64,000 bases of DNA from Terebella lapidaria (taxonomy: Eukaryota; Annelida; Polychaeta; Terebellida; Terebellidae), in NCBI GenBank assembly GCA_949152475.1, contig OX424563.1:10699001-10763000 (forward strand), read 5' to 3'. The notes under the pieces were generated by a model that was not told the DNA's origin, searched no databases, and saw only the letters and a list, made by a program, of their open reading frames with translations. How positions within the stretch are numbered: the stretch's first letter is position 1; every line of letters begins with the position of its first letter. This document shows, one piece after another, positions 5,265 to 49,845 of the stretch. Made by a program: the position numbers and the translations under genes.

Positions 5265-7713
5265 AGTTGGGTATCCAACTCAGATGATGGGTTTCCAATT
5301 TGGGGATCCGATGTCTAGCTCTGATGATTGAGTTTATATCTCAAGAGGCTTTGGTGTACAGCTCGGAGGATTGGGTGGCCAGCTCTGAGGATTGGCGTAC
5401 AGCTCGGTGTCTTTGAAACTTGGTGTAAGTTCTAAGGATTGGGTGTCCAACTAGGTCGGGGGATTGGGTGTCCAACTCTGAGGATTGGGTGTCCAGATCG
5501 GAGTCTTTGAAACTTGGTGGAAGTTCGAGAGATGGGGTGTCTAGGTCGGGGGATCGGGTGTCCAACTCTGAGGATTGGGTGTCCAGCTCAGAGTCTTTGA
5601 AACTTGGTGTAAGTTCGAGGGATTGGGTGTCCAGGTCGGGGGATTGGGTGTCCAGCTCGGAGTCTTTGAAACTTGGTGTAAGTTCGAGGGATTGGTTGTC
5701 CAGGTCGGGGGATCGGGTGTCCAACTCTGAGGATTGGGTGTCCAGCTCGGAGTCTTTGAAACTTGGTGTAAGTTCGAGGGATTGGGTGTCCAGGTCGGGG
5801 GATTGGGTGTCCAACTCTGAGGATTGGGTGTCCAGCTCGGAGTCTTTGAAACTTGGTGTAAGTTCGAGGGATTTGGTGTCTAGCTCGGGTGATTGGGTGT
5901 CTCACTCTGAGGATTGGGTGTACAGCTCGGAGGATTAGGTGTACAACTCGTGGGATTGGGTGTCCAACTCTGAGAATTTGGGTGTACATCTCGAGAGATT
6001 GGGTGTCAAGCTCGGAGGCCAGCTCTGAGGATTGGGTGTACAATCATGTGGATTGGGTGTACAATTCGTGGGGTTGGGTGTCCAGCTCTGAGGATTGGGT
6101 GTCCAGCTCTGAGGATTGAGAGTCCAGCTCTGAGGATTGAGAGTCCAGCTTTGAGGATTTGGTGTCCAGCTTGGATGATTGGGTGTCCAGCTCGGAGGCT
6201 TTAGTGTCCAGCTTGGAGGATTGAATGTCCAGCTCTGAGGATTGGGTGCCCAGCTAAGAGTCTTCGAAACTTGGTGTAAGTTCGAGGGAATGGGTATCTA
6301 TCTCGGGGGATTGGGTGTCCAGCTGGGGGGATTGGGTGTACAGCTCGGAGGATTGGGTGTACAGCTCAGAGAATTGATTGTCCAGCTTGGAGGATTCGGT
6401 GTCCAACTCTGAGGATTGGGTATCCAGCTCTGAGGATTGGGTGCCCAGCTCGAAGTCTCTGAAACATGGTGTAAGTTCAAGGGATTGGATGTCTAGCTCG
6501 GGGGATTGGGTGTCCAGCTCAGAGGACTGGGTGTACAGCTCGGAGGATTGGGTTTCCAGTCATGACGATTGGGCTTGGAGGATTGGGTGTCCAGCTCTGA
6601 GGATTGGGTGTCCAGCTCTGAGGATTGGGTGTCCAGCTTTGAGGATTGGACATCCAACTCTAAGGATTGGGTGGCCAGCTCAGGCGATTGTGTGTCCAGC
6701 TCGGAAATTGGGTGTCCAGCTCGGAGGTTGGGTGTCCAGCACTAAGGATTGGGTTCCTTGGTGTCAAGTCTTTAGTGTCCAGCTTTGAGGATTGGGCGTC
6801 CAGCTCTGAGACTTTAGTGTCCAGCTTTGAGGATTGGGTGTCCAGCTCAGAGACTTTAGTGTCCAGCTTAGAGGATTGGGTGTCCAGCTCGGAAGCTTTA
6901 GTGTCCAGCTTCAAGGATTGGGTGTCCAGCGTGGAGGCTTTAGTGTCCAGCTTGGGAAATTAAGTGTCCAGCTCGGAGACTTCAATGTCCAGCTTGGAGG
7001 ATCGGGTGTCCAGCTTGGAGGATTGGGTGTCCAGCTCGGAGGCTTTAGTGTTCAGCTCGGAGGCTTTAGTGTCCAGCTGGGAGGATTGGGTGTCCAGCTT
7101 GGAGGATTGGGTGTCCAGCTTGGAGGATTGGGTGTCCAGCTTGGAGGATTGGGTGTTCAGTTCGGAGGCTTTAGTGTCCAGCTCAGAGGATTGGGTGTCC
7201 AGTTCGGGGGCTTTAGTGTCCAGCTCGGAGGTTTTAGTGTTCATCTTGGAGGATTGGGTGTCCAGCTTGCAGGATTGGGTGTCCAGCTCGGAGGCTTTAA
7301 TGTCCAGGTCGGAGGCTTTAGTGTCCAGCTCAGAGGATTGGGTGTCCAGTTCGGGGGCTTTAGTGTCCAGCTCGGAGGTTTTAGTGTTCATCTTGGAGGA
7401 TTGGGTGTCCAGCTTGCAGGACTGGGTGTCCAGCTCGGAGGCTTTAATGTCCAGGTCGGAGGCTTTAGTGTCTAGCTTGGATGATTGGGTGTCCAGCTTG
7501 GAGAATTCGGTGTCCAGCTCAGAGGATTGAGTGTCCAGCTTCTTCAAAACTTGGTATAAGTTCGAGGGATTGGGTGTCCAGCTCGGAGGATTGGGTGCCC
7601 AGCTCGGAGTCTTCGAAACTTGGTGTAAGTTCGAGGGATTGGGTGTCCAGCTCAGAGGATTGAGTGTCCAGCTCGGAGTCTTCAAAACTTGGTGTAAGTG
7701 CGAGAGATTGGGT
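5265..7713. repeat. 21-bp minisatellite, left block
   Basis: Degenerate tandem units with consensus GATTGGGTGTCCAGCTCGGAG, about 2.4 kb. Some units carry a 27-bp insert (TCTTTGAAACTTGGTGTAAG and 7 more bases). Both lengths are multiples of three and the consensus has no stop codon, so long ORFs appear in several frames: DWVSSSE-type heptads on plus, LDTQSSE-type on minus. I treat these as repeat artefacts. The block ends exactly where the LINE-A tail begins and resumes near 13918. Confidence 0.93.
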
Positions 7714-8006
7714 AGACAAGACAAGACAAGAAGTTTATTTCAATTCCCTAAACAAAAATTTTATCACATTAGTTTATAATAGACGGATGGCACAATTGGG
7801 AATTGAGGACCAAACAATAGCGTGGGCTGTCTTCCTGTTTGGCCCCTTGTAACGAAAAAGAACATTTATGAAATCGAACAAATATTAATAAAATGGATCG
7901 AGACGAATACGTGGGGAAAAAATGTAAAAAAATGCAGACCCAAAAAGACCGAACATGTGGTATAATCTTGATTACTTCACTTGAAAGAACAGACGCGCAT
8001 TTACGT

Positions 8007-13917: not shown

Positions 13918-16095
13918 GCCCAGCATGGAGGATTGGGTGTCCAGCTCGAAGTCTTCGAAACTTGGTGTAATTTCGAAGGATAGGGTGTCTAGCTCGGGGG
14001 GTTGGATGTACAGCTCGAGGGATTAGGTGTCCAGCTCGGAGGATTAAATGTCCAGCTCGAAGGGTTGGGTGTACAGCTCGGAAGATTGGGTGTCCAGTCA
14101 TGACGATTGGGTACACAACTCGGGGGATTGGGTGTCCAGCTCGGAGGATTGGGTGTACAGTTCGGAGGATTGGGAGTCCAGTCACGACGATTGGGTGCAC
14201 AACTCAGCGGATTGGGTGTCCAGCTTTGAGGATTGGGTGTTCAGCTTTGATGATTGGGTGTCCAACACACAGCTCGGAGGATTGGGTGTCCTATCATAAC
14301 GATTGGGTATACTTGAGAATTGGGTTTCCAGCTTTGAGGATTGGGTGTACAGCTCGAGAGATTGAGTGTCCAGCTCGGAGGATTGGGTGTCCAGCTCTGA
14401 GGATTGAGAGTCCAGCTTTGTGGATTGGGTATCCAGCTCTGAAGATGGGGTGTACAGCTCGAGAGATTGAGTGTCCAGCTCGGAGGATTGGGTGTCCAGT
14501 TTTGAGGATTGAGAGTCCAGCTCTATGGATTGGGTGTCCAGTTCGAGCGATTGGGTGTCTAGCTCGGAGGTTTGGGTGTCTACCTCAGAGGACTGGGTGT
14601 CTAACTTGGAAAACTGGGTGTCCAGCTCTGTGGATTGGGTGTCCAGCTCGAGCGATTGGGTGTCTAGCTCGGAGGTTTGGGTGTCTACCTCAGAGGACTG
14701 GGTGTCTAACTTGGAAAACTGGGTGTCCAGTTCAGAGGATTTGGTGTACAGCTCGGGGGATTGGATTCCCAGCTTGGATGAATATATTCCCAGCTCAGGG
14801 TATTGGGCGTCCAGCTCAAGAGATTGAGTGTCCAGTTCGAGCGATTGGGTGTCCACCTCAGAGGATTGTGTCCAGCTCAGGGATTGGGTGTCTAGTTCAG
14901 AGGATTGGGTGTCCAGTCCAGAGATTGAATGTCCAGCTCAGATGATTGGGTGGACGGCTTGGAGGATTTGGTGACTAGCTTGGATGATTAGGTGTCTAGC
15001 TCAGGATATCGGGTGTCCAGCTCAAAGGATTGGGTGTCCAGTCCAGAGATTGAGTGTCCAGCTCAGAGGATTGGGTGTCCAGTTCCACGGATTGGGTGTC
15101 CAGGTCGGAGGATTGGGTGTCCAGTCCAGAGATTGAGTGTCCAGCTCAGAGGATTGGGTGTCCAGTTCAACGGATTGGGTGTCCAGGTCCGAGGCTTTGG
15201 TGTCCCGCTCAGGAGATTGGGTGTCCAGTTTGAGGGATTGAGTGTCCAATTGGGGGATTAAGTTTCCAGTTCGGGGATTGGGTGTCCAGTTGGGGGATTG
15301 AGTTTACAGTTCGGGGGATTGGGTGTCCAGTTGGGGATTGAGTTTCCAGTTCGGCGGATTGAGTGTCCAGTTGGGAGATTGAGTTCCCAGTTCGGGGATT
15401 GGGTATATAGTTGGGGGATTGAGTTTCCAGTTCAGGGATCGGGTGTCCAGTTCAGTGGATTGGGTGTCCAGTTGGGGGATTGAGTTTCCAGTACGGGGAT
15501 TGGGTGTCCAGTTGGGGGATTGAGTTTCCAGTTCGGGGATTGGGTGTCCAGTTGGGGGATTAAGTTTCCAGTTCAGTGGATTGAGTGCTCAGCTTACTTC
15601 CCGCCCCCCCCCCTTCCCCCCTTCACACTGGTACGTCATGATGCAATCCAAAATTGGGTGTCCAGTCCAGAGATTGAGTGTCCAGCTCAGAGGATTGGGT
15701 GTCCAGTTCAAGGCTTTGGTGTCCCGCTCAGGAGATTGGGTGTCCAGTTTGAGGGATTGAGTTTCCAGTTCGGGGATTGGGTGTCCAGTTGGGGGATTGA
15801 GTTTACAGTTCGGGGGATTGGGTGTCCAGTTGGGGATTGAGTTTCCAGTTCGGCGGATTGAGTGTCCAGTTGGGAGATTGAGTTCCCAGTTCGGAGATTG
15901 GGTGTATAGTTGGGGGATTGAGTTTCCAGTTCAGGGATTGGGTGTCCAGTTCAGTGGATTGGGTGTCCAGTTGGGGGATTGAGTTTCCAGTACGGGGATT
16001 GGGTGTCCAGTTGGGGGATTGAGTTTCCAGTTCGGGGATTGGGTGTCCAGTTGGGGGATTGAGTTTCCAGTTCGGTGGATTGAGTGCTCAGCTTA
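13918..16095. repeat. 21-bp minisatellite, right block
   Basis: Same 21-bp family as the left block (GATTGGGTGTCCAGCTCGGA and variants), separated from it by LINE-A. After about 15240 the units become GATTGAGTTTCCAGTTCGGG-like and shorter. A large segment ending in CTCAGCTTACTTCCCGCCCC occurs twice (ends near 15650 and 16145), each time followed by the same TTCACACTGGTACGTCATGA border, which shows a duplication of about 500 bp. Confidence 0.9.
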
Positions 16096-26873: not shown

Positions 26874-27025
26874 TCTGGTAGCAGAGCGTGGTTCTTCATT
26901 CGTTGGATTATATGACTTCGTATCATATCCGGATTATTTTGACTGTTCGTGTCGTATTGGATTACGTGTCATCACTGACTGAATATTCGTGACATTTATT
27001 TCGTTCGTTGCCACTGTATATCAAA

Positions 27026-29773
27026 ATGGATGAATTGAAGAGTGTTCGACAACACAAGAAAAGGGCACTGACAGTCCGCATTAATGCTGTGCAGAGATAT
27101 ATCGCAGAACAGAGTGAAGTGGAATTTATCAAAGAAAAACGAGATGAACTGAAAACGTGTTTTTCCGACTTCGAGGACAGTCATGGCAGTATTGTTGAAG
27201 CTGCAAAGACCGATGAAGAGTTTGATGAACTTGACAAATATTTCGATGAGGTTCAGTCGTCATATGTACAGACACTGAAGGATATTACAGAACACTTAAA
27301 ACAAGAAGATGAGCCACAAAGCACAAGACCATCAACACCACGAGAGCAGCCCATAGTGTCTCCGATGAACATAATGAATCTTCCAAAAATCGAAATTGAA
27401 ATCTTCAGTGGTGATCCTCTCAGGTATCACACATTCATCTCGACCTTCGAAGAGTCCGTGGAGAGGTATTGTGAGGACGGCGGAGCACGCCTCACACGAT
27501 TACTACAGTACACAGAGGGGCCAGCCAAGGCAGCCATCCGAGCCTGTGCCATCACCGGTGGGGAGCGAGGATACAAGCAAGCTCGAGAAATCCTGGAGCG
27601 CAGGTTTGGAGACAAATTACTCGTGTCCGAGGCGGTGACTTCCAAGTTACGACGAGGAAGGCCAGCTCATAAGAGAAATGAGATCCAGGAGTTGGCTGAT
27701 GACCTCGCGACGTGCGTCATCACCTTGAAGGAAACCGGCAGGGTCAATGAGATTGACACGCAAAACACAATCCTAGATATCGTTGGTCGGCTCCCAAGGT
27801 ACGTCCAAAATCGCTGGCGAAATCATGCCATGGATATTCGTAGAGATGAGGGACTCTATCCGACCATCGAACACCTCGTGAGCTTCGTGGCAGATGTCGC
27901 AGAGGACGTCAATGATCCAGTGTATGGATACAAAGATGATTATACCAGGAACCAAAGAGTGAACACGTCCCAGTCACACAAGACTTTCACATCGCAAGGA
28001 CAAGCATCAGCTTCCCGTGGATACAAGTGTTTCGCCTGTGGTGAGTCGCATGGGATATGGGCCTGTGACACATTCAAATCAAAGTCAGTACAAGAGCGCT
28101 GGGACCTAGCTAAAGAACGTCAACTATGTTTCCGCTGTCTGGGGCGTGGCCATTCGGGCAATCGCTGCATGAAAAGCAGGGTGTGTGGCATAAATGGATG
28201 TCGATCAACACATAATCGCATGCTACATGAGGTGAGGGAAAAAGCAAACACCAATGTAGTCAGAGAGCCAAGCACCACGGAAGGGGAGAATGCCGAAAAT
28301 ATGACACTGGTGGCCAAATCGTCGGAGGCGCCATCCTTCGTCTCGTTCAGAACTGTGCCTGTATACCTGGTGAATGGCTCAAAGAAAATACGTGTCAATG
28401 CTCTGCTGGATGAGGCCAGTTCCGGTACATATATGAACGAAGACGTAGCAGCAGAGCTTGGCCTGTCCGGTGAGATAAATCCGTTGACAGTTAACGTGTT
28501 GGACGGAAACCAGACGAAATTGAGGACGATGGCTGTATCATGCAGTCTGCACAGCATTGACGGCAGTGTTCAACACCAGATATCAGCGCTGACAGTAAGG
28601 CGGGTCACAGGAAATCTGCAGGTCATCAACTGGAATGACAAAAAACATCAATGGCCACATCTTCGTAACATCAGATTTCCGGATATTGGTCGTCATTCGA
28701 CAATTGACATCCTGATCGGGGTAGATCACGCTGACCTACTCTACTCCAATCGGGACATTCGAGGACGTCCTGGGGAGCCCATCGCTCGACTAACACCCCT
28801 GGGATGGACGTGCATCACAGCGACACCTAGAGAACGTGACAAAAATCAGACAAACTTTGTATTCTTCGGAAAAGAAGTAGATGACCTCAGTACCATATTC
28901 CATCAGTACTGGGAAATAGAAGAGCCTGCCTTCATAAGCAGCATGAACGAAAATGACAAAAATGCAATGGAGACAGCAGAAAAAACACTATCCTATGACG
29001 AGGGTCGATACACAGTGGGAATACCCTGGAAGACAGAGCCGGAGCTGCCAACTAACAAAGATATGGCTATGAAGCGCCTGCAGGGCACCGAGAAGCTCCT
29101 GAAGCAGACACCAGAAGTGGCACAAGTCTACAACGAGACCATTCAGAGGTATGAAGAAAAAGCCTACATCAGAAAAGTGCCAAAGATTGAAGACAAAACA
29201 TCCGAGCCTTGGTACCTGCCTCACTTCCCCGTCATCCGGCAAGATAAAGAAACAACAAAGACCAGGATAGTTTTCGATGCATCTGCACGTTGCAAGGATG
29301 TATCACTGAATGACATGATATATCCAGGGCCAAAGTTACAGAATGACTTATCGAGTGTCATTCTGAGATTCCGTCGTGACCCCGTGGCCTTGATGTGTGA
29401 TGTACAGGAAATGTACCTGCAGGTCAATATGAGGGAAGAAGATCGTCGCTTCCATCGCTTTCTCTGGAGAGAAATTAAAGAAAACACAGAAGCTGACGTA
29501 TTCGAGTTCAATAGGCTGGTGTTTGGAGTCAATTCGTCACCGTTCCTGGCCCAATTTGTGACCCAACAGCATGCCAAACGCTTGGAAAATCAATACCCGC
29601 TGGCAGCTCAAACAGTGCTGTACAGCACCTTCATGGACGACAGTATGGATTCAGTGCCTGATGCAGATACGGCAATTGAAATGTATCATCAACTCTCCAA
29701 CATGTGGCATGAAGCAGGAATGCATGCCAGAAAATGCCTATCAAAGACCAATTGCAAAACTATGCCCCCTTGA
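27026..29773 (+). CDS. BEL/Pao Gag-protease-partial RT polyprotein
   Basis: The start is the ATG at 27026 (AAAATGG context); 915 residues. N-terminal coiled-coil-like, charged region (MDELKSVRQHKKRA); Gag core (IEIFSGDPLRYHTFISTFEE near residue 125); CCHC-type knuckles from about residue 335 (CFACGESHGIWACDTF; CFRCLGRGHSGNRC); aspartic protease motif near residue 460 (ALLDEASSGTYM, with Ala where Gly is usual after the Asp); RT from about residue 720 (RIVFDASARCKD, DVQEMYLQV, FMDDSMDS near residue 868). The protein stops about 45 residues after FMDD, so RT thumb, RNase H and integrase are missing. The frame is otherwise uninterrupted. Confidence 0.9.
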   Translation: MDELKSVRQHKKRALTVRINAVQRYIAEQSEVEFIKEKRDELKTCFSDFEDSHGSIVEAAKTDEEFDELDKYFDEVQSSYVQTLKDITEHLKQEDEPQSTRPSTPREQPIVSPMNIMNLPKIEIEIFSGDPLRYHTFISTFEESVERYCEDGGARLTRLLQYTEGPAKAAIRACAITGGERGYKQAREILERRFGDKLLVSEAVTSKLRRGRPAHKRNEIQELADDLATCVITLKETGRVNEIDTQNTILDIVGRLPRYVQNRWRNHAMDIRRDEGLYPTIEHLVSFVADVAEDVNDPVYGYKDDYTRNQRVNTSQSHKTFTSQGQASASRGYKCFACGESHGIWACDTFKSKSVQERWDLAKERQLCFRCLGRGHSGNRCMKSRVCGINGCRSTHNRMLHEVREKANTNVVREPSTTEGENAENMTLVAKSSEAPSFVSFRTVPVYLVNGSKKIRVNALLDEASSGTYMNEDVAAELGLSGEINPLTVNVLDGNQTKLRTMAVSCSLHSIDGSVQHQISALTVRRVTGNLQVINWNDKKHQWPHLRNIRFPDIGRHSTIDILIGVDHADLLYSNRDIRGRPGEPIARLTPLGWTCITATPRERDKNQTNFVFFGKEVDDLSTIFHQYWEIEEPAFISSMNENDKNAMETAEKTLSYDEGRYTVGIPWKTEPELPTNKDMAMKRLQGTEKLLKQTPEVAQVYNETIQRYEEKAYIRKVPKIEDKTSEPWYLPHFPVIRQDKETTKTRIVFDASARCKDVSLNDMIYPGPKLQNDLSSVILRFRRDPVALMCDVQEMYLQVNMREEDRRFHRFLWREIKENTEADVFEFNRLVFGVNSSPFLAQFVTQQHAKRLENQYPLAAQTVLYSTFMDDSMDSVPDADTAIEMYHQLSNMWHEAGMHARKCLSKTNCKTMPP

Positions 29774-37102: not shown

Positions 37103-37692
37103 GTAAGCTACGGACGGTAGAGATAACCCTCTCACTTGACTTCAGACTTGGCAGCAGCTATACTCGGATTTTTCTAACTCGTTTACAGTTTTTCGCTAAT
37201 ATTTTTGTGATGCTAAACGCTATCGGTCTCTAACTTGGCATACTTCACATGGAAGTCAAACGGGAACTTTCTACCAAATTTCAGACAGCTATCGCGAAAA
37301 TTGAAAAAGTTGGCAATCTACCTCAATGTTAAATTTAGCTCTATTATTTATTTTCTGGGCCCGCACACAATTTTGTGCATTTGCTCGGTTTTGTAGCGGA
37401 GCAATGTTTCAAAATCAACATGTTTGTGTAGAATACACTCCAATGTATCTTCTGGTTCAAATTAACAAGAATATTTCGAATCCTGATGGGTGTAAACAGG
37501 ACCAATTCCTCGAATATGCTCAGATTCTCGAGATCCCGTTTTGGGCTGAAATTTAATATTGAGGTAGATTGCCAACTTTTTCAATTTTCGCGTTAGCTGT
37601 CTGAAATTTGGTAGAAAGTTGCCGTTTGACTCCCAGGTGAAGTATGCCAAGTTATAGACCGATTGCGTTTAGCATCACAAAAATATTAGCGA

Positions 37693-38197
37693 TGTTGTGC
37701 CATGCGGTTTTACGATATGGCCGAACGGTGGGCCGCAAAGCACACCAAGTTCAAGGGAAAAATACACAAAGGTAACTCACGCTTGTCAGTCGCCGTGCAG
37801 TTTCCCTCACACACACACAGCGTTGTCAGGTTAGCAGTAGCAGGCAGCTAGTAGACTCGAGTCTGTCCGCACGTGGAACTCCAGTCGTCTCACGTCCGTA
37901 GCCGAAGTCTGCCCGTGGATTTCTCTGTAGTATCTGCCCGTGATGAATAGACGCCCCGAACATTTATTGCAAGATGACCACTCCTATCTTGACCGGCGTG
38001 TTCACCGACGTGGAGACAAGTCACACAGGCCGGTTCACTGAGGCGTGAACAAGTCACTCGGGGATCTTCGTTATAGCCGAACCCGGCCGAATCAAGGTTC
38101 GTCAGTTTCCGGACTACTCCGTGATGACTGGTTGTACTTCTTGACTACACACCGACATCATAAATAATAGACATTTTTACGATCAAAATCTACAACA
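37693..38197 (-). repeat. Gypsy 3' LTR (left in window)
   Basis: 505 bp, TGTTGTGCCATG...ATCTACAACA as written on plus. Carries a minus-strand AATAAA near 37972-37977. Confidence 0.95.
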
Positions 38198-38215
38198 CAC
38201 TTCCCCTTTTTGAAG
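38198..38215 (-). other. Gypsy polypurine tract
   Basis: Minus strand reads CTTCAAAAAGGGGAAGTG immediately before the 3' LTR, the expected plus-strand primer. Confidence 0.8.
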
Positions 38216-38593
38216 AAACCCCCTTGATATTAAACATGTTGAAAGGATTTATTTGGTGATTTGATAAAAATAGTGTGATATGTATATTAAAACCAGCTTT
38301 TACGATGAACTTCACACAGAAGGGCTACGGGTTGTATACAACAACCTGTAGAGCCTTCTCATACACACTAACACACTCACAGCCACACAAGTAAACACAC
38401 AACTAAGATCAGCATTCCGGAAGCCTACCGCGAACACTAAACAACTGAAGCCACAATTTGGGAAGATTAATTATCCAACCGGAAAAACCTTAACTTGGAA
38501 TACACTTAAAACTACCCAAAACCCAACTCCACTTAACAGCGCATGTAAACCGGGTCGTATACTACGTCCTAATTCACATGCTTCCCAACCCGA

Positions 38594-40093
38594 CTAATAA
38601 TCTAACCGATAAAACTGGCTAGCTGCCCGGCGAGTCCGACAAACTACCAACGACAACGGGAGGTGCTTGATCCGGGCTACCTCAGTGGCAAATGGTTTCA
38701 GGCTCCAGGGACCAGTGGCCAGCAGTGGGGCATCACTTTCAAGTATGAGGCGATCAAGCGCACACTGCTGAACCACAGCTGCTGTGTCGGGGTGACTGAA
38801 GACCTTGGAACCGACCCCGATAAACAATTTGAAGGTCCGGGACCACTTATGGAAAAGCACGAGGGAACCACAGAAACAGTGAATATAAACAGGATATCCC
38901 TGGGGCAAAACATCTGTAGCGATACGGTACAGGTCGTCATAAGCGTCCCAAGAATCTTCCTTGTCTCGGCAGTGAAATACAACCGGGAGCACTTTGACCT
39001 TAGCAAGATCTAGAGCCTCTCTAAGATATCTTTCCTGTGCCGCCTTCTGCTCATCCGTGCGGTGCCTGGAGTAATCGATCCCGACCTCACCTATGGCTAC
39101 ACACTTAGGGTGATCAGCCAGCTGATGGAGCTCTCGAATAAGATCGGAACACGGACTAGATGCCACATGAGGGTGAACCCCAACAGAAACACTTATCTCC
39201 GGTGATTTATTCACAACTGACATTATCCCGAGACTGTGGGGAAAATTCAAACTCGCCACAAACGCAACCACGTCGAGGAAATTGGAATTCTGCCGACATA
39301 CACTCTTAGCGTGAGCCAGATCGCGATATCGGCTCGAAATCATCATCCGGTCGAGGTGACAGTGTCCGTCTATAGCAAGCAACGGGGGATCCGGGAAAAT
39401 TTTAACTTGACCCTGCCTCGAGACAGAAACGGCTAGACCGGGGTCTGGCAACAGCTGTACAAGTTCAAATAAGACATGCCAGTTCGTGAGCGATGATAAT
39501 TTGTTGGGAGGGCTGATCTGATACAGCGGAATAACATCCTGGCCGGTTCGCATGTCAAAAAGTGCTGCCATATCCAAATCAACAGACGAGAACTGATAAT
39601 TTTTTGGCGTAACGGGGAAATGAACCTGTGAATATTCCAACAACCCCTCATGACCTCCCTGAATACCCAGCTGACCTTCAAGAAATTCAAAGAATCCAAA
39701 CAAAAGCTTTAACCATAACTCGACATGAAGATCGCTAAAGTAGCCGTCGACAGGGTTATCGTCATGGCGATTGGATCCTGCTCCGTGTTTCATCCGGTCG
39801 AAACTCATGCTTCCTTCGCTGGTTTCACAAATAAAACAGGACCTATCGGGGAGCACATACCAGGGCAAATGCTTCTGTAGCGCATGTCTTTTAATAGACG
39901 TTCCCGCTGACTGGGTGCACAAAGGACAAGTTTTCTTCTTGTTTTTCGTTTTCTTGGAAGCCCCCTCCCCCTTCCTCTTCGAAGACTCCACCTCAGCCTC
40001 CTCCTCTTCCACGACCTGCAAAGGTTTCACCTCTTCCCCCTCTACCTCCTCTTCGTAATCAGGGACAAAATTTGCTTCGTCTTGGGAATCCAT
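38594..40093 (-). CDS. Gypsy third ORF: zinc fingers plus TatD-type nuclease
   Basis: First ATG at 40093 (MDSQDEANFVPDYEEE); 499 residues. Residues 1-40 are acidic; a basic KKTKNKKK cluster follows near 47-54 (possible nuclear signal). Two C2H2-like motifs come next: C56-x2-C59-x10-H70-x4-H75 and C86-x2-C89-x13-H103-x6-H110. From about residue 240 a TatD-family metal-dependent hydrolase: AIDGHCHLDRM (H244, H246), VGVHPHV, CVAIGEVGIDYSRH (E336), PVVFHCRD (H374), PVYIHCFCGS (H405), LILESDAPLL (D454). All six ligand positions of TatD enzymes are present, so nuclease activity on DNA or RNA is plausible. Residues 110-235 are unassigned. The ORF lies 241 bp below pol in the same orientation, with a splice acceptor 8 bp before the ATG. 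The closest animal family is TATDN2-like. Confidence 0.9.
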   Translation of the reverse strand: MDSQDEANFVPDYEEEVEGEEVKPLQVVEEEEAEVESSKRKGEGASKKTKNKKKTCPLCTQSAGTSIKRHALQKHLPWYVLPDRSCFICETSEGSMSFDRMKHGAGSNRHDDNPVDGYFSDLHVELWLKLLFGFFEFLEGQLGIQGGHEGLLEYSQVHFPVTPKNYQFSSVDLDMAALFDMRTGQDVIPLYQISPPNKLSSLTNWHVLFELVQLLPDPGLAVSVSRQGQVKIFPDPPLLAIDGHCHLDRMMISSRYRDLAHAKSVCRQNSNFLDVVAFVASLNFPHSLGIMSVVNKSPEISVSVGVHPHVASSPCSDLIRELHQLADHPKCVAIGEVGIDYSRHRTDEQKAAQERYLREALDLAKVKVLPVVFHCRDKEDSWDAYDDLYRIATDVLPQGYPVYIHCFCGSLVLFHKWSRTFKLFIGVGSKVFSHPDTAAVVQQCALDRLILESDAPLLATGPWSLKPFATEVARIKHLPLSLVVCRTRRAASQFYRLDY

Positions 40094-40114
40094 ACTAAGA
40101 TCTGTAATAAGCAA

Positions 40115-40333
40115 ATATTAACACCCCAAAGAAACCATGAAACAAACAAATCTTTTCCTAACTTAACGCCACCACCGAAGAGAGAGAAATATCATATATA
40201 CAAGGAACATGTCAGACAATATACCACTGTCTGAGAATCCTACCTTATTCAGTTATATACAAATTCCAAATAACACATCAGTGTGAACTGTCGGACAATA
40301 TACCACTGTCTGAAAGCTCAATTCTACATACAA
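40115..40333 (-). promoter_or_regulatory. pol-ORF3 spacer with palindromic repeats and splice acceptor
   Basis: Two near-identical 23-bp imperfect palindromes (TCAGACAATATACCAC...TCTGA) lie at 40212-40234 and 40291-40313. In element sense, TTTGCTTATTACAG ends at 40102 just below the spacer, a good 3' splice site for a subgenomic mRNA. A third palindrome copy is inside pol at 41964-41986. Confidence 0.5.
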
Positions 40334-43300
40334 CTAGGGCACATAGTCGCTCAAATAGGCAGGTTTTTTAACATTCCTTCCTACCCTGGTCTGCACACTA
40401 AATTCAGGAATACTGTCATCAGTACTATCATAATCACCTTCATCCTCTTGATCGAGATTTCCAAGTCCATATGGGATAGTCTCATTTAAATCCCCGGAAT
40501 TTGCTAATCCCTCGGAATTTGCTAATCCCTCGGAATCCGACATAACCAAAGCCGTGATGTTGTCCACAACTGCTTCGGATTCCGGAACATCAATAGCAAC
40601 ATCTTGTTCTAAAAGACTATGCCTTTTCCTACGTATCCACAAAGGAATATCCCGATCAGCACAAAGTTTAAGGTTGTCGTGGTGAAGAATGAAATTTCGG
40701 CGCCTGTCCTCAATTCGATATAATACAGGCGAGACGACCTTGGTCACTAGGAAGGGACCTACATAAATTGGCTTCAATTTAGAGCTTTCCCCAGTTTTAT
40801 GACTTAGGTCCAGCCTATAGACTAAATCACCCTTTTCATATTTCTTCTGATTTACTTGGCCCTCATGATACTTTTTCTGTCTTTCCTGGTTCCCTAGCAA
40901 ATGCTTCCTCGCCACGTCATGTGCTTTAGTCAGATTTTGTAACAGACCCTTCAGATAAACACCAACATCACCACCTTCTAGATTCACATTTGAAATACCC
41001 AACATCTCAGCTGGAAGTGACACTTCCCTACCCAGCATCAAAAAGTTTGGGGTATAACCAGTGTTTCGGTTAACCATACTTCTCATAGCCATACCCAACA
41101 GTGGCAAATATTTGTCCCAATCCTGCTGCTTGCCATCTAGGTAACACCTAATGGAGGACAAAATAACCCTGTTGTAAACCTCGACTTGGCCATTAGAGCA
41201 TGGACGATAAGGGGTGGTTCTGGTTTTAGTAATTTCAAGTATGCGACAAAGGTTCTGGAACAAACTTCCTTCGAAATTTCTGCCTTGATCTGAATGAATG
41301 AACACAGGAATTCCCAGACGAGAAAAGAAATTATCTACCAAAGTTTGAGCTACGACTTCCGCAGTCTGGTCCTGCACGGCATAACATTCAATCCACTTGG
41401 TAAATTGATCTACCACTACTAATATGTACTTATTCCCACGATCACTAACCACAAACGGACCTAGCATGTCTATATGCACTCTTTCCATAGGAACCCCTGC
41501 ACAAAAGGAACCTAAACTGGCCCGCGGTTTGCGAGTTGCTTTTTTGTTCTGATTACACTTGGAACAAGTTTTAACATATAGATCACAGTCAACTCTCATT
41601 TTATACCAGTAGAAATTTTCACGAAGTCGTTTCAAGGTCTTATTTTGTCCAAAATGACCTGCCGTCTTTGCATCATGCACAAGGAATAAGATCGGATCTC
41701 TTAAAGATAAGGGAACCACTAACTTCAGCCTAGTGGAATTATCACTACCCTCTACCCAATGGTAATAAAGTACACCGTCTCGTAATTCAAGTTGGTCCTT
41801 GTGTAGCCACAGAAATTTAGTCGCAACACCATGAGGGAATAAATCCTCCTTTGTCGGTATTTGACTCGACGCTAACCAGGTCATAATTGGACGAATACTG
41901 GGATCTGACTTTTGAGCATCACTGATTTCTTCTGGCGAGTACCCATGTGTGAGCACCTCATCTTCGGACAGTATACTACCGTCTGAAAAGTCAGAAACTC
42001 CTACATTACGCACTGCCAAAGGAACAACGTCATCAACCTCGATCTCAAAACGTTTCCATTGAGTATGCACTCTAGTACAGAAACTACAACCGCCACATGG
42101 AAGATCACTAAGACTTTCCCCTGCCCGATAGCAGTCACAATAGTCTATCGGATCGTGCCTCCTAGTGGGAGCATCCGCGTTACAATGTCTCTTTCCAGAA
42201 CGATGTATGATAAACATATCAAACTGGCTAAGCTCCTCAAGCCAGCGTGCGAGCTGTCCCTCTGGTTGTCGAAAACGAAGTAACCAAACCAAACTATGAT
42301 GATCGGTCCTAACACAGAATCTACGGCCTAACAAATAATGTCTATACTGACGAGTGAAAACAATTATAGCTAACAATTCTTTCCTCGTGGTACAGTACTT
42401 TCTTTGAGCCGATGACAAAACTTTACTTCCGAAGGACACTGGCTTTTCCACACCATCCTGTACTTGACTCAACACAGCACCTACAGCAATATTTGAAGCA
42501 TCAGTATCCAGAATGAATAAATCTGAAGAATTAGGGAAAGTTAAGGTAGGACATTCAGCTATCTTCATTTTGAGTAAATCAAAAGCTTGCTGGTGTTCGA
42601 GATCCCATCTAAACCTTGCTTTTGGACCTGTTAATCCATATAGACAGGCTGAAATTTCTGCAAAACCTTCCAGAAATTCACGATTATAGTTCATGAACCC
42701 TAAATACGACTCTACTTCCTTTCTACAGGTAGGTTCTGACCAATTCAAAACTGCATCAACCTTTTCATGCGTCATAGTTATTCCATCCTTACTCAGATGC
42801 TTCCCCAAGAAATTTACCTCATGTTGGAACAACACACACTTTTTGGGTTTCAGACGAAGGTTGTATTCACGGAATCGTAAAAGAACGGTTCTCAAATTCT
42901 CAAGAGCTTTCGAAAAGGTGTCACCCAGTACAATAACATCATCCAAATATGCTAGAGCTTCCTGCCACTGAAGCCCGTGCAGCACAAAATTCATGGCTCT
43001 TTGAAAAGTTGCTGGTGCGTTACATAACCCAAATCCCATGCGAACATGTTCAAACAACCCATATCTAGTGATGAATGCGGTTTTGTGCCTATCCTTGGGA
43101 TCAATACTAATCTGCCAATATCCAGCAGCTAAATCCAATGTTGAGAAAAATTCAACACCTCCAAGTGAATCTAAGCACTGCTCAATCAAAGGCAATGGGT
43201 AGGTATCCTTTATAGTCTTGGTGTTTAGACCGCGGTAATCTATACAATACCTAACTGACCCATCTTTCTTTCTCACCAAGACAGGCGCTGACGCCCACTC

Positions 43301-44585
43301 AGATGCTGAGGGTTGTATTACACCTATCTCTAACATTTTATCCAAGTGCGCTTTCTCCTCTTTTTCAAAACCTATGGGAGTCCTACGCATACGTTCCTTA
43401 ACAGGTTTTTCTGGTCCTGTGTCTATTTTGTGTTGTATGACCTCAAAATGACCCAAGTCAAGATCACTTTTTGCAAAAACATCAGCAAACTCAATCAGGA
43501 AACTTTTCAATTCACTTCTCTGCTGTTCATTCAAATTAATTGAACTCCGGTCAAACAGATTAACCATGTGCGCCGGAAGTTCCTGCACTACAATCTCCCT
43601 AACAACTATTGATTCAATTTGGTGATCGTCAACACTGAAGTCCAAGTCTTGAGAACCGGGGGGTGATACTACCTCCTGATTAACCAGACTTTTTCTCAAG
43701 CATGACTCTCGCCCCTCCAAAGCATACCCTTTACCTAAACTAGTGTCCACACAAGACCCAGGCATTTGAGAGGCGGATTGCGATACTGCACTCTGCTTTT
43801 CACACGCCCAGCTCCTGCCTGACTGTATACTAGGAGCGTCCAGCATTTCACTGACCGGCATGGCATTACCAACAAGACAGCCTCGCTTCAGCGTCCGATA
43901 ACCTAAGCTACAATTTATGACTCGGATATGTACTTCAGAACCCTGAAGGAGAACTCTAGGGATCAGAATCCCCGGTTGACTAAGAACAGGTTCCACTATG
44001 TGTGATCCATTACCTAGCAAACTATCTATTTTGGCCTTTACCACTTTCATGCTATTAGGTGGTATGACAGTTCGCTTGGACAATAGAACTGGCTTTAAAA
44101 TAATTTGACCAGCCATGCTGTTCTTCTGGATTGCTGGAACAACTTCTCCCTGTACTGCCAAGGTATTATTCCCCATGTTTATTGAGCAGTTATGAGCCTT
44201 CAGGAAATCAGAACCTAGCAGCAAATCTTCAGAAATGTTTGCCGTTATCATAGGCCAATTAAATTTCTGATTGCCCACTTCTAATTTCACACTACTAAGC
44301 TTATATCCCTTGGTCTTACCACCAAAAGCTCCTGTCATGCCTATTTCTTCTTTACTCTTTGTATCGAGAGACTTCGTTTTTAGGAATTTTTCATTGATTA
44401 TGGTTGCCTCAGCTGCAGTGTCTATCACAGCATTAATTTTCTGGCCTTCAACTTTCACTGGAATGACTAAGGTCCAACCCCAGTGTTCATTTATTTCACC
44501 ACTGCTAACGTTATGGACATTGCGGCCCTCAACACCCTTCGGAGCTGAACTTTGGGCCGAAAACCCAGCTCCTAAGCTTTTAACG
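40334..44585 (-). CDS. Gypsy pol: protease, RT, RNase H, integrase
   Basis: The frame is -1 relative to gag and open from just above the gag stop (about 44585), so pol is probably made by frameshifting. Residue numbers count from the KVEGQKINA stretch at about 44458. Protease DTAAEATI (Asp13); RT with RYCIDYRGLN (404), LDLAAGYWQI (441) and the catalytic YLDD (504-507); RNase H DTDAS (651) and RTDHHSL (718); integrase zinc-binding H928, H935, C965, C968 and catalytic D997 (VHIDMLGPF), D1057 (HSDQGRNFEG) and E1093 (SNGQVEVYN). A GPFLVTKV-type linker follows, then an acidic tail with duplicated EGLANSEGLANS and no chromodomain. The residues checked are all intact. Confidence 0.96.
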
Positions 44586-46761
44586 GACTATGAGGGGTGT
44601 CTGACTTCCTAGCTGGCGATGGACTACGAGATGTAGGACAATTTCTCGATATGTGACCTAGCTCATGGCACTTAAAACACTCAAAGTCTTGATGTGTTTT
44701 CCCAGACTGCTGTTTTTCCTCCATGACCCCCTTTTCACTACGTTTCGGGCACTCGCGGCTAAAATGGCCCTTATTCCCACAAGTGTAACATGTAACATTT
44801 GCTCGGGATCCTGGCGATGGAGATCTAGGACGGCTATCAATTTTTTCTGCTAGTGCCTTGGTGAGTTTCATCAAATCTTCTAGCACTCGGCCACTAACTT
44901 GAACAGAATCCTTCGTTGTACCTACATTCCTCACTGCAGGACCTTCAACCTCCTCAAATGACACCTGTCTACTTGACAAACTAGTCTTATAGCCCAAAGA
45001 ACGCATGTTAAACATGGAACGCTTTGCATGTTGTAAAGCTTTCTCAACTGTTCGAGGTTCTTTCTCGAAAACTTTTTCAGCTATATGTTTATCAGCTAAA
45101 CCCCGAATGAACACATCGACTGCTACCCCTTGTAGTGTACCACGAGCTGCACCAGGAAACCCTTCCTGACCTAGCTGGAGAACTCTATCCGCAAAATCCT
45201 CTAAAGGCTCATCTACTGTCTGTTTAGCACAGTACATTTCCTTCCTAACCGTTGCTGGTGGATCTCTCGCACCATAACGCTTTTTCAGATCAGCAATAAG
45301 GTCACGATAATTATGACGGACTCTCGTGGGTAGACTTTCAACAAAGTCGATAGCTTTATCCCTCAAACATGTTTTTAGCTTTTCCAATTTGGCATTATCT
45401 GTCCACCTGTAGTTATGGCTGAACTGTTTAAACTGGAAGTAGAACGACTTCCAACTAGCTTTGTCACCACTGAAAGTTGGCATTTTCGGCAAAACCGAAT
45501 CACCCTTACGATGGCGTGTACCATGCTCCCTGTCACTAACCCACTCCTCATCTGACGACGTATTTGGCCCACTATCATAACTTGACTGAGAACTTTCCTC
45601 ACGACGGCGAGCCCTCGCCCTCCTTGGAACATCATCCCTCTGCACTCTAACAGGACTCCTAGCCCGCTCCGCCGGCCTACTTCGCCCCCGTGGTTGACCT
45701 ACTCTCCGTTCCCTTCTTTCTCCACCAGACTCTCGATACGTTTCCTCAACCCGATCTGATTCATGAACCCCACCCAGAGGTGTTTGAACAGGGCGTACCC
45801 CCTCCCGCGGGTTCCAAGTCTGTTGTACCACAACTCGAGGGTACAAGTTGCCATCTGCCGGTTGTACTGCTGGATTGTTCATAGAAACTTGGTGGGCATC
45901 TAACTGAGACCCGAAACTTTTAAGTCTCTCTGGAGCAACAACTGGGATAGGATTTGGTCTTTCCCATTCCCCACAATACTGTCCAGAACGGTACGTTCCT
46001 CCTGCCGGATAAGATGAATCATCCACCCTCCCCCTTTCTAATGAGCGCTGCTCAACTCCTACTACATTTGAGAGAGTATGCCTGGTGATAGGATTACTAG
46101 ATTCAGAGACATCTGAGTTTTTACCTCCATAAACCCCACCATCAGGAAATGCTTTACTTACAACTTCATTTTGCCATTTCATGAACTCCTGATTCCTAGT
46201 GCGGGCTCTATCCTCCCATACCTGTGGGTGCCTCAACTTTAAAGTTTGAGCTTGTTTAGAATGAGTCTGCACTACATCCTCCTGTTCATTTTTACATGCA
46301 GTTAAGGGTGTAAACTCTTGTGTCAGATATTCACTACTTCTACGATCTTGCTGAGGCTTTATAAGGTTTAATTCATTCGTACGCTCTTGTTCAGATTTTA
46401 CGAAGTTTAGTTCGCTCCTCATTTCTTTTTGATAAGCCTTCATTTCCTTTTGATCAGTAGTCACGTTAAGAAGCTTTTCCTCAAACATTTCCATCATATT
46501 CAGAATTCTGTCTAATTTCCTATCCGTGTCACTAACAGGATACATACATGTAGTACTTTTTTCTGAAGACAGTGGTTTTATGACACCATTGTCAATCAGA
46601 TCTTGAAAGAAACGCTCACTCAACCCAGTAGCCTCAGCTAAGTTATTCAGGGTTACATCATCTTGTTGCAAATCCACTATAGCCCGTGCTCGAGCTTCAC
46701 CTATCTGTGGAATTTCCTTTAGTTCAATAACTGAAGCCGTCTCTAAATCGATAGGATTCAT
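44572..46761 (-). CDS. Gypsy gag with N-terminal helix-hairpin-helix-like motif
   Basis: 729 residues from the ATG at 46761. Residues 9-30 (SVIELKEIPQIGEARARAIV) match the helix-hairpin-helix pattern (E-L-x-x-I-P-x-I-G-x-x-x-A-x-x-I), a non-sequence-specific DNA-binding fold, unusual at the start of a Gag. A Glu/Lys-rich coiled-coil-like stretch spans about 85-145. The capsid-like core is near 430-610 (FSGDKASWKSFYFQFKQF; IADLKKRYGARDPP). Two CCHC knuckles: CYTCGNKGHFSREC (658-671) and CFKCHELGHISRNC (695-708). The ORF ends HSPLKA. Confidence 0.94.
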   Translation of the reverse strand: MNPIDLETASVIELKEIPQIGEARARAIVDLQQDDVTLNNLAEATGLSERFFQDLIDNGVIKPLSSEKSTTCMYPVSDTDRKLDRILNMMEMFEEKLLNVTTDQKEMKAYQKEMRSELNFVKSEQERTNELNLIKPQQDRRSSEYLTQEFTPLTACKNEQEDVVQTHSKQAQTLKLRHPQVWEDRARTRNQEFMKWQNEVVSKAFPDGGVYGGKNSDVSESSNPITRHTLSNVVGVEQRSLERGRVDDSSYPAGGTYRSGQYCGEWERPNPIPVVAPERLKSFGSQLDAHQVSMNNPAVQPADGNLYPRVVVQQTWNPREGVRPVQTPLGGVHESDRVEETYRESGGERRERRVGQPRGRSRPAERARSPVRVQRDDVPRRARARRREESSQSSYDSGPNTSSDEEWVSDREHGTRHRKGDSVLPKMPTFSGDKASWKSFYFQFKQFSHNYRWTDNAKLEKLKTCLRDKAIDFVESLPTRVRHNYRDLIADLKKRYGARDPPATVRKEMYCAKQTVDEPLEDFADRVLQLGQEGFPGAARGTLQGVAVDVFIRGLADKHIAEKVFEKEPRTVEKALQHAKRSMFNMRSLGYKTSLSSRQVSFEEVEGPAVRNVGTTKDSVQVSGRVLEDLMKLTKALAEKIDSRPRSPSPGSRANVTCYTCGNKGHFSRECPKRSEKGVMEEKQQSGKTHQDFECFKCHELGHISRNCPTSRSPSPARKSDTPHSPLKA

Positions 46762-47606
46762 CTTGAAATATTCTTGCTAATCCAAAAAAAAAAAAAAAAA
46801 ATAGTAAAAATCAGCGTGCAAAGAGAAAGGATAGACCTAAATGAGTTCTATACACAGGTTGTATACAACACCCTATGTACTTAACCCATAGAACTTAATT
46901 ACACTATATAAAGAAAGGTGCCAAAACTACTCAGATCATAATTTACTCCACTACACGATCACACATGAATTTTTTATTTTATGAGGGAACATAGCAATAA
47001 AACCATTTACTAGCTAGACAAGATATTTTCCAAAATTTCAGTTTTTTAAACTACAAATTTTTTATCACAGACTTATTTCAAAGCCAAATGAATTTGATTA
47101 CAATAAATAGTTTCTTGAATAACCACAAAGTCTGACAAAAAGAATCAGGTATACACAGAAACTCTTGAATCTATTCAATGTAAAATCAGTTTTGGGGCGT
47201 GAACTACACTTTCCGACAGTAACTTACTAGCTAAAGAGTTACATACACGCTAGCTTTACAATTATACGGACTGAAGAAAAAATTGCTTTGTTTGTTTTTC
47301 CAAAACTTCAAAGTAAATTGCAATATCTGGTCGTTTGACAGGTCCGAGTTCCGGAAATATTCCGAAATTAATGCACTAGAACAGCTGTCATAATCCGAAT
47401 GCTCAACTATCCGAATTTTAGGAGAACTGTCAACTTGCAAATAAACCTCAAACGAACAAAATTTTGCCTGAAAAATCACCTAAACTGACAAACTAGACTG
47501 CCGCTACAATCTACAACCAATTCCCTTGAAGAAATAAATTTCTGTCTACCAACCAAGCGCTTACGGTCAGTTCAAATTTGTTTGTGTCTGCACTTCTGAC
47601 ACCATT
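46762..47606 (-). other. Gypsy 5' leader and primer-binding site
   Basis: 845 bp between the 5' LTR and gag. Next to the LTR, after AA, the minus strand reads TGGTGTCAGAAGTG, close to the complement of a tRNA-Leu 3' end, the likely primer site. An A run (plus 46784-46801) lies just before the gag start. No long ORF. Confidence 0.75.
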
Positions 47607-48111
47607 TGTTGTGCCATGCGGTTTTACGATATGGCCGAACGGTGGGCCGCAAAGCACACCAAGTTCAAGGGAAAAATACACAAAGGTAACTCACGCTTGT
47701 CAGTCGCCGTGCAGTTTCCCTCACACACACACAGCGTTGTCAGGTTAGCAGTAGCAGGCAGCTAGTAGACTCGAGTCTGTCCGCACGTGGAACTCCAGTC
47801 GTCTCACGTCCGTAGCCGAAGTCTGCCCGTGGATTTCTCTGTAGTATCTGCCCGTGATGAATAGACGCCCCGAACATTTATTGCAAGATGACCACTCCTA
47901 TCTTGACCGGCGTGTTCACCGACGTGGAGACAAGTCACACAGGCCGGTTCACTGAGGCGTGAACAAGTCACTCGGGGATCTTCGTTATAGCCGAACCCGG
48001 CCGAATCAAGGTTCGTCAGTTTCCGGACTACTCCGTGATGACTGGTTGTACTTCTTGACTACACACCGACATCATAAATAATAGACATTTTTACGATCAA
48101 AATCTACAACA
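47607..48111 (-). repeat. Gypsy 5' LTR (right in window)
   Basis: 505 bp; I could find no difference from the copy at 37693-38197. Confidence 0.95.
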
Positions 48112-49845
48112 GCGAAAAAACAGTGTAAACGAGTTAGAAAAATCCGAGTATAGACAAAGTACGTCTTTCGGGGATACCTGCTGAGGACCGCAGGTCCGAA
48201 AGACGAAGTGCCATGCGTGTTGAATAGTGTACTTCGATGCGAACGAAATCTATTCGCTGTTTGAGAGTTCAAAACTTGGTGAAAACTAACGAAAATTGCA
48301 GCAAAACTTACCAAAATGGCAAGCATAATCATTTCAAAGTTGTTATCTGTGTTAAAATCGTTGATTCATTGTGTTTTACAAACATTTTCAATCATTTGAA
48401 CTAAACCGGCAAAATCAGGCAAGTTTCTCGCTTCGATTCAATGGCGGTTTCACCATTGCCTCGATAAACTCCGTGACACAGAAATTTGGTGTAGAATCAA
48501 ATCGAAACGGAAAATGTGTTGCGTAATGCTGAACAACATGTACGCAACACTAAGCCAGTTTCGACTTGATTCAACACCGTATAAAAACCGCCATTGAATC
48601 GAAGCGAGAAACTTGCCAGATTTTGCATCTTTGGTTCAAACGATTCAAGATGTTTGTAAAACATAATAAATCAGCGATTTTAGTGCACATAACAACTTGT
48701 AAATGATTATCCTAGCCATTTTGGTAGGTTTAGTTGTAATTTTCGTTAGTTTTCACCATGTTTTGAGTTGTCAAACGGCGAATAGATTTCATTCGCATCG
48801 AGGTACACTTTTTATCATGCATGGAACTTCGTCTTTCGGACCTGCGGTATGAAGCGGATTTACTGACAAAAATACAGGTCGTGTCGTTTTAGTTTGGTTT
48901 CGTGTGATGTGTCCGTTCGTACGCTGTTTTACTTTGAAATCGCATCGTGTTGGTTCATGGTTACGTGCTTCATTTTAACATAGGTTCGTGGGCGATGTCC
49001 TCTTTTCGTGAGTCACTTTGACACTAATTCGTAGGATATGTCATATCTTCATAGATCTAGTTGTCGTGAGGTACATATAGGCCTAAATATGCCATCTTTC
49101 CATTCTTTAAGTCACAATCTCGTAAGTCATTAAGACACTGATCACTGTTTCGTAAGCAATACCAATCTCCCGTGGTGCATGTCACTTCGTAACTAATTCC
49201 GCAGCGTAACACTGTCTCAGAGAAAGGACTACTTTGTAACACTCTCTGTTCGTAAGCGATCTTATCTCGTGGGCTTTGATTTGAACGAAAATGGAACGTT
49301 CTTTGGGTCATAATTCCCATCCCGTTTGCATTCACTGCTCTTAGATCCGTTATGTGCTGAGCTCTGCTCTATTGTGCAATATGGCTGGTCATTCATGCTT
49401 TATTAAATCGCGCTGATTGATTTCTGAATAGTTCATAATTAGCCATTGTTAAAACACGTAGCACATTTCCAAATCAAGCCCCATTAAACTGGTAGGCCTA
49501 CGTGATTTGAAAATTTGCAATTCGTGCAGCATCGCCCCCATTTGCAAATCACCCACATCACGCACACGTCAGCAATAGCAGCGCCCATTGGTACCATAAT
49601 CAGTGTGAAATCTTCTAATTGGTCAGACACATTGCATCCGGGGTGGGGTTCTATGGCCAAGTTTTTATGGTGTAGGACTTGCAGAGGAGTAAAGGGGGGG
49701 GGGGGGGGTTGGAGTGGGGTCATGCTACGTAACATAATTTGTTTGATAAAAAATACAATTAATCCCAAACTCGTACATGTATAAATCCAATCCATGTGCT
49801 GTAGAATTATCTAATATTTGATACTACCGGTATTTGAATGGTACC

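What the first reader, a model, noticed from the sequence alone, without database searches (positions are those of the whole stretch)
38594..40093. Young Gypsy retrotransposon carries an intact TatD-type nuclease with zinc fingers
Seen: an uninterrupted 499-residue ORF inside the LTRs, in pol orientation and in the env position, with two C2H2-like motifs and every TatD metal-ligand position kept (H244, H246, E336, H374, H405, D454). Known: TatD enzymes are metal-dependent nucleases and animals have TATDN1-3; Ty3/Gypsy elements normally need only Gag-Pol plus sometimes Env. Inference: the element captured a host TATDN2-like gene and keeps it under selection, perhaps to process cDNA or R-loops, to degrade host or rival nucleic acid, or to aid integration. 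The zinc fingers and basic patch would direct it to nucleic acid in the nucleus.
Basis: partly seen in the sequence, partly recalled or inferred. Interest (0 to 1): 0.9.

Follow-up and report, generated by a model that had tools for sequence, protein, structure and literature searches.

The report
Jumping genes carrying a TatD nuclease
A branch of virus-like jumping genes in this animal genome carries its own DNA/RNA-cutting enzyme of the TatD family, apparently taken up long ago and kept in working order by natural selection, even in copies that have lost their own copying machinery.

Summary
The window holds a young Ty3/Gypsy element (37693-48111; LTRs 505/505 identical; 4-bp target duplication) with gag, pol and, in env position, an intact 499-aa ORF: an N-terminal double zinc finger plus a TatD domain (Pfam 9e-40). 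It is not a one-off: the 761.6-Mb host genome gave 152 TatD matches. In 35 of 36 loci read, gag or pol lies upstream in the same orientation. Thirteen families, 27-56% identical, keep all six TatD metal ligands and, in 13/13, a splice-acceptor-like YAG just before the ATG. RT and TatD trees share 6 of 7 splits. A listed TatD follows 54 of 61 RTs of this clade and 0 of 33 outside it. So probably one ancient capture, then co-descent. Within-family dN/dS is 0.10-0.18 in four families, uninformative or weak in three, the window's among them. One family lost pol, has at least 11 copies, and still shows purifying selection on TatD (P=4e-7). No paper found reports it; the nearest precedent is the DEDDy-exonuclease ORF3 of rotifer elements. 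The role is inferred: an auxiliary nuclease acting on the element's own nucleic acid, or counter-defence.

The parts
37689..37692 (.). Target-site duplication GCGA, left copy
   Evidence: read; the same 4 bases follow the other LTR
48112..48115 (.). Target-site duplication GCGA, right copy
   Evidence: read
47607..48111 (-). 5' LTR (505 bp, TG...CA)
   Evidence: 100% identical to the other LTR
47588..47604 (-). Probable primer-binding site just inside the 5' LTR; resembles a tRNA-Leu 3' end (tRNA name recalled, not tested)
   Evidence: sequence
47222..47230 (-). Candidate splice donor (CTA|GTAAGT) in the leader before gag
   Evidence: pattern scan, one of several donor-like sites; weak evidence, no transcripts
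44572..46761 (-). gag ORF, 729 aa, with two zinc knuckles and an N-terminal helix-hairpin-helix (below Pfam's cut-off here)
40334..44458 (-). pol ORF, 1374 aa: protease, RT, RNase H, integrase (open frame reaches back to 44587, overlapping the gag stop)
40102..40115 (-). Candidate 3' splice site (TTTGCTTATTACAG) 8 nt before the TatD ATG
   Evidence: a YAG lies within 11 nt of the ATG in 13 of 13 families, background 0.34, P 9e-7
38594..40093 (-). ORF3: zinc finger-TatD protein, 499 aa
39764..39928 (-). Double zinc finger (C56-C59-H70-H75; C86-C89-H103-H110); no Pfam model passes its cut-off
38609..39373 (-). TatD_DNase domain with all six metal ligands
37693..38197 (-). 3' LTR (505 bp)

Best explanation
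SHOWN by sequence: a clade of Ty3/Gypsy LTR retrotransposons carries, in env position, an ORF3 encoding an N-terminal double zinc finger joined to a TatD-type metal nuclease domain with its active site intact. INFERRED with good support: it was captured once, before the clade diversified, and has descended with pol since; it is kept by purifying selection. INFERRED with moderate support: it is expressed from a spliced subgenomic mRNA as env would be. INFERRED, mechanism: the zinc finger and basic patch bind nucleic acid, and the TatD barrel trims or removes RNA or 3' ends in the element's own replication or integration intermediates, acting preferentially on the copy that encodes it (for example carried with Gag and its RNA). 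That would explain why a family that lost pol, which other copies can supply, still keeps gag and TatD. My confidence is about 0.85 for capture and selection together and about 0.4 for the mechanism.
For: Intact TatD domain and fold. Six of six metal ligands in 14 of 14 proteins; seven of eight zinc ligands in 14 of 14 and H103 in 13 of 14, although the 13 families share only 27-56% identity. gag or pol upstream in the same orientation in 35 of 36 loci. A listed TatD within 9 kb downstream of 54 of 61 RTs at 56% identity or more to the window's RT, and of 0 of 33 RTs at 52% or less. RT and TatD trees of 10 families share 6 of 7 splits; no random tree of 20,000 shared more than 4. Distinct-change dN/dS: 0.14 and 0.15 (two halves, L011 family), 0.10 (L041), 0.13 (L021), 0.18 (pol-less family), each with P below 1e-4. 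Eleven copies share one pol-deletion junction. YAG before the ATG in 13 of 13 families.
Against: No transcript, protein or activity data. dN/dS is uninformative or weak in three of seven families: 2 syn/5 nonsyn (window), 2/5 (L025), 8/12 with P 0.085 (L031/L032). Copies were taken from a list ranked by TatD score, which favours intact TatD. Related Gypsy RTs of the same genome have no listed TatD, so it is not basic replication chemistry. TatD branches are about three times as long as RT branches (medians 0.79 and 0.26), as expected also of a counter-defence gene. With a polypyrimidine demand only 8 of 13 families have a splice acceptor (P 0.001). On the TatD domain alone the AU test does not reject grouping the window's gene with TATDN2 (p 0.17). 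Two of the six shared splits have low support in both trees.
Confidence: 0.5

Rival explanations
1. Counter-defence: the nuclease destroys host small RNAs, R-loops or silencing intermediates, or rival nucleic acid, so that the element escapes restriction.
For: Clade-specific among the RTs examined; evolves about three times faster than RT; the animal relative TATDN2 is reported to be an RNase that removes RNA in R-loops (PMC10707325, passages read).
Against: A diffusible product supplied by full copies should let pol-less copies lose TatD, yet they keep it. No target is known.
Confidence: 0.3
2. The protein serves only as a nucleic-acid-binding or packaging factor in env position, and catalysis is irrelevant.
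For: The zinc finger and N-terminal stretch are as conserved as the TatD domain (mean pairwise identity 37% and 35% against 36%).
Against: All six metal ligands are invariant in 14 of 14 proteins, the others being 25-33% identical to the window's, which a binding-only role would not demand.
Confidence: 0.12
3. A host gene caught by chance in a few recent copies (hitchhiking), without selection by the element.
For: Window family: dN/dS uninformative and 2 of 7 paired-LTR copies damaged in TatD.
Against: Thirteen families, congruent trees, dN/dS 0.10-0.18 in four families, relatives from other samples inside the clade.
Confidence: 0.03
4. The gene acts at integration: it processes flaps or gaps at the new insertion, or directs it, through its zinc finger.
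For: Basic patch K39-K54 next to a zinc finger; bacterial TatD enzymes are 3' exonucleases (recalled); Gag carries a helix-hairpin-helix, a DNA-binding motif.
Against: The target duplication of the window copy is an ordinary 4 bp; no target-site preference was tested.
Confidence: 0.1

Closest known systems
Bdelloid rotifer Juno/Vesta LTR retrotransposons with DEDDy-exonuclease ORF3 (Rodriguez et al. 2017, PMC5408684; abstract and passages read)
   Same: Nuclease-type ORF3 after pol in an LTR retrotransposon; a Cys-His-Cys motif is noted in two of them; ORF3s are said there to be expressed from spliced messages
   Different: Different enzyme (DnaQ-like, not TatD); at least two acquisitions there, probably one here; no significant departure from neutrality reported there, strong purifying selection here; 'tatd' occurs 0 times in that paper
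TatD / YcfH / TATDN1-3 nucleases (Pfam PF01026)
   Same: Full domain, predicted fold and six metal ligands
   Different: Joined to an N-terminal zinc-finger and helical region without a Pfam model passing its cut-off (6 families and 4 environmental proteins scanned); encoded by a retrotransposon; 31% identical to dolphin TATDN2
TR-GAG and other non-autonomous LTR retrotransposons (search listing only; meaning recalled)
   Same: Copies without pol that keep gag and spread
   Different: Here the pol-less family also keeps a second ORF, TatD, under selection
Ty3/Gypsy errantivirus-like elements with env (recalled)
   Same: Third ORF after pol with a splice-acceptor-like site
   Different: ORF3 is an enzyme-type protein, not a membrane glycoprotein

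Membership tests
TatD nuclease family | Pfam TatD_DNase over the curated cut-off, full length | tested here: met
   137 bits against 27, profile 1-252 of 253
TatD nuclease family | Six metal-ligand residues | tested here: met
   present in the window and in 14 of 14 aligned proteins; their role as ligands is recalled
TatD nuclease family | TIM-barrel TatD fold | tested here: met
   predicted model, residues 321-450 pLDDT 84-97, the first part of the barrel mostly 63-89; PDB ranks 1-14 are all TatD enzymes
TatD nuclease family | Metal-dependent nuclease activity | not testable with these tools
   needs protein
Animal TATDN2 | Orthology to TATDN2 | tested here: inconclusive
   bacterial-type TatDs form one side of a branch (99/95), leaving TATDN2 with the retroelement clade; TATDN1 and TATDN3 were not in the tree; AU test
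Ty3/Gypsy LTR retrotransposon | LTRs (TG...CA) and short target duplication | tested here: met
   505/505, GCGA
Ty3/Gypsy LTR retrotransposon | PR-RT-RH-IN order in pol | tested here: met
Ty3/Gypsy LTR retrotransposon | Placement in a named lineage by RT tree with reference elements | not tested
   no reference elements at hand
Retroviral/errantiviral env | Env glycoprotein family match | tested here: not met
   Pfam gives TatD only; the model has a TatD barrel; no transmembrane predictor was run
DEDDy ORF3 of rotifer elements | DEDD exonuclease domain | tested here: not met
   Pfam gives TatD only

The most novel reading that the evidence does not exclude
TatD nucleases form an ancient, widespread class of selfish-element enzymes in animals: a retrotransposon clade is defined by a zinc finger-TatD gene that acts in cis, or against host RNA-based silencing, and many genes annotated as 'TATDN2' in invertebrate genomes are copies of it.
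Probability: 0.35. Interest if true: 0.8.

Novelty: new variant of a known kind. Interest (0 to 1): 0.64.

Why it matters
Accessory enzymes in LTR retrotransposons are known, but their benefit to the element has been hard to show; the rotifer study reported no significant departure from neutrality for its ORF3s. Here one enzyme marks a clade, has descended with RT, shows strong purifying selection in four families, and is retained by a multi-copy family that discarded pol. That makes the question 'what does an extra nuclease do for a retroelement?' directly testable. It also suggests that TATDN2-like gene counts in animal genomes may include transposon copies.

Tried and rejected
Rejected: chance ORF; host gene beside the element (it lies inside the LTRs in the window copy, follows gag or pol in 35 of 36 loci read, and 7 paired-LTR copies exist); env; recent private capture. 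Selection in the window's own family could not be shown. A second pol-less locus (C12:11631856) was tested for spread: its junction occurs once only, so it is a local deletion. Pol-poor loci C3:12355580 and C11:24567799 were not tested for spread. Scans of viral contigs: with the window protein none; with the profile three distant TatD hits of 25-27% identity, not followed. Of the 7 clade RTs without a listed TatD, one has a degraded TatD (L070), three show none in the 1.6 kb read (L069, L071, L072), three were not read.

Literature: of ten searches, six bear on TatD in retrotransposons; one search is a weak test and searches had other ends. None of the listed papers reports it as far as I looked: passages were read in PMC6962438, PMC5840709, PMC7545183 (its 'TatD' hits are the gene name TaTDP1), PMC5408686 and PMC5133447; the other listed papers were seen as listings only. 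PMC6338049 on accessory domains was read in part 1 of 4. Only open-access papers are held; Repbase and subscription papers were not searched.

Rows dropped: one search left L010, L012, L026, L038, L044, L061, L062 out of the alignment (broken, shifted or partial); L038 and L044 came back. The L011 family counts use 9 of 11 related loci (without L010 and L012). L032 is N-terminally incomplete. and one search scored only about 8000 candidates each, so missing relatives mean little.

Full report
OBSERVATION. The ORF lies on the minus strand, ATG at 40093, stop at 38594, 499 residues. Pfam gives TatD_DNase at 9.2e-40 over profile positions 1-252 of 253. Of the 15 PDB sequences matched at E 0.001, 13 carry TatD, TATDN, YcfH or YjjV names; the other two are an uncharacterised metalloprotein and a 3'-5' exonuclease. 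An AlphaFold model (mean pLDDT 71; residues 321-450 at 84-97, the first part of the barrel mostly 63-89, residues 1-50 under 50) matches TatD enzymes of bacteria, humans and Entamoeba at PDB ranks 1-14. The surrounding element is complete in outline: LTRs 37693-38197 and 47607-48111, identical over 505 bases, 4-bp duplication GCGA, gag 46761-44572, pol 44458-40334 with protease, RT, RNase H and integrase.

COPIES. The host genome is a 761.6-Mb assembly without a name. A six-frame Pfam search gives 152 TatD matches, 150 of 216 candidates being scored; some matches are pieces of one locus. The window's LTR has 35 matches, of which seven pairs at about 9.9-kb spacing are whole-length copies. Five of those seven have a 507-codon open TatD frame; one lost seven codons' length including metal ligand H405 (L030), and one keeps only part of the domain.

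NEIGHBOURHOOD. I read 36 TatD loci from the upper part of the TatD list, chosen to cover different families: 20 stretches of 10 kb and 16 with separate TatD and upstream pieces. At least one gag or pol piece lies upstream in the same orientation in 35 of 36; RT itself was seen in 18 of 20 and 8 of 16. The exception is L010.

CONSERVATION. One protein of each of 13 families plus one environmental protein (P0002) were aligned. Families share 27-56% identity. The six TatD ligands are kept in 14 of 14; zinc ligands C56, C59, H70, H75, C86, C89 and H110 in 14 of 14, and H103 in 13 of 14. An N-terminal motif PDY[EDQ]E is present in 12 of 13 families. The N-terminal half matches no Pfam family at its cut-off in the 6 families scanned.

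HISTORY. The RT and TatD trees of the 10 families for which both were read share 6 of 7 splits; 20,000 random trees shared at most 4 with the RT tree. Two of the shared splits have low support in both trees; the four well-supported TatD splits all occur in the RT tree. Among the 94 RTs scored for the window's RT (of 10,755 first-look candidates), 61 are at least 56% identical and 33 at most 52%; a listed TatD lies within 9 kb downstream in 54 of 61 and 0 of 33, and one more of the 61 has a degraded TatD. In a tree of 40 TatD domains the retroelement and environmental proteins form one side of a branch (99/89); the environmental proteins are mixed among the families, and a clade of this genome's 13 alone is rejected (p 0.001). 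So diversification is older than this host lineage, if those environmental proteins come from other hosts; they bear no organism names. TATDN2 is left beside the retroelement clade when the tree is rooted on bacterial-type TatDs, but TATDN1 and TATDN3 were not included, and the AU test does not reject grouping the window's domain with TATDN2 (p 0.17). The shared zinc-finger half argues against a separate origin.

SELECTION. Counting distinct codon changes: L011 family (9 copies) TatD halves 15 syn/7 nonsyn each (omega 0.14 and 0.15), against gag 9/12 (0.40), protease 7/17 (0.75, not different from neutral), RT-RNase H 11/12 (0.33), integrase 14/11 (0.23); L041 family (3 copies) 16/5 (0.10); L021 family (5 copies) 12/5 (0.13). 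Uninformative or weak: window family (3 copies) 2/5, L025 family (2) 2/5, L031/L032 (2) 8/12 (0.48, P 0.085). The loci were ranked by TatD score, which biases towards intact TatD, so the comparison with pol should be taken loosely.

POL-LESS FAMILY. The locus C2:43184073 (534-aa frame) has a gag ORF, an ORF that by eye is the tail of pol, and an intact TatD ORF, but no protease, RT, RNase H or integrase hit. Eleven copies span the whole deletion junction at 94-100% identity. Sister copies, about 80-84% identical there, have an RT between the two sides, for example at C17:9267462 and C2:3892130. In one search, eight of the eleven have a TatD open frame of at least 523 codons (one of these, L038, is frame-shifted near its start), two are shorter without stops in the domain, and one has a stop. 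Among four of the eleven copies (L036, L037, L038, L044) TatD shows 24 syn/13 nonsyn changes, omega 0.18, P 3.7e-7 against neutrality; their gag pieces have too few changes (2/4). Since these copies share the junction, the changes probably followed the loss of pol; exchange with pol-bearing copies is not excluded but should have left blocks of much greater divergence. TatD was therefore still selected in copies that would have to borrow pol. A similar deletion at C12:11631856 is a single copy.

EXPRESSION. A YAG lies within 11 nt upstream of the TatD ATG in 13 of 13 families, against 34% of positions in the same loci (P 9e-7; the distance limit was set after looking). With a demand for a pyrimidine tract it is 8 of 13 against 20% (P 0.001). 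A GTAAGT lies in the leader of the window copy and of L053. This resembles env expression by splicing, but no transcript was seen.

MECHANISM. The catalytic set is intact and old, so the protein probably cuts nucleic acid. TATDN2 is reported as an RNase acting on R-loop RNA (PMC10707325, passages read). Retention in pol-less copies favours action in cis or with Gag; absence of listed TatD from other Gypsy RTs and fast divergence favour an auxiliary or counter-defence role. I put own-intermediate processing at about 0.4 and counter-defence at 0.3.

KNOWN. Nearest is the rotifer DEDDy ORF3 (PMC5408684, abstract and passages). The six literature searches that bear on it found no TatD in retrotransposons in the held library (listed under Tried and rejected). 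The giant squid genome paper lists a TATDN2 among non-Hox genes in its Hox cluster (PMC6962438, one passage), which could be such a copy. I file the finding as a new variant of a known kind.

Noticed in passing
window 46603-46755 (-); L053; L058: Gag of this clade begins with a helix-hairpin-helix motif (HHH_3 1.2e-6 and over the cut-off in L053; below the cut-off in the window and L058), unusual for a Gag as far as I recall.
   Followed up: partly
window 37193-37336 and 37549-37692: Inverted repeat arms of 144 nt, 95% complementary, ending exactly at the 3' end of the element: it inserted at the edge of a hairpin-forming repeat.
   Followed up: no
L049+L064+L033 (G000:C3:12351330-12356420): Local tandem duplication: the end of gag and the start of the TatD ORF occur twice before one full TatD ORF.
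   Followed up: no
L071 (G000:C8:9896300-9897900): An open frame of 278 aa on the opposite strand to the RT, which looks like a fukutin-related host gene (name by recall), lies where TatD is expected downstream of a clade RT.
   Followed up: no
giant squid Hox cluster (PMC6962438): A gene called TATDN2 is listed among non-Hox genes in the cluster; it may be a TatD-carrying retroelement.
   Followed up: no
window 27008-29773: A 921-aa open frame with CCHC and RT-like stretches, probably a separate BEL/Pao-type element (by eye).
   Followed up: no
window 5341-7724 and 14100-14945: Long minisatellite-like arrays open in several frames on both strands.
   Followed up: no
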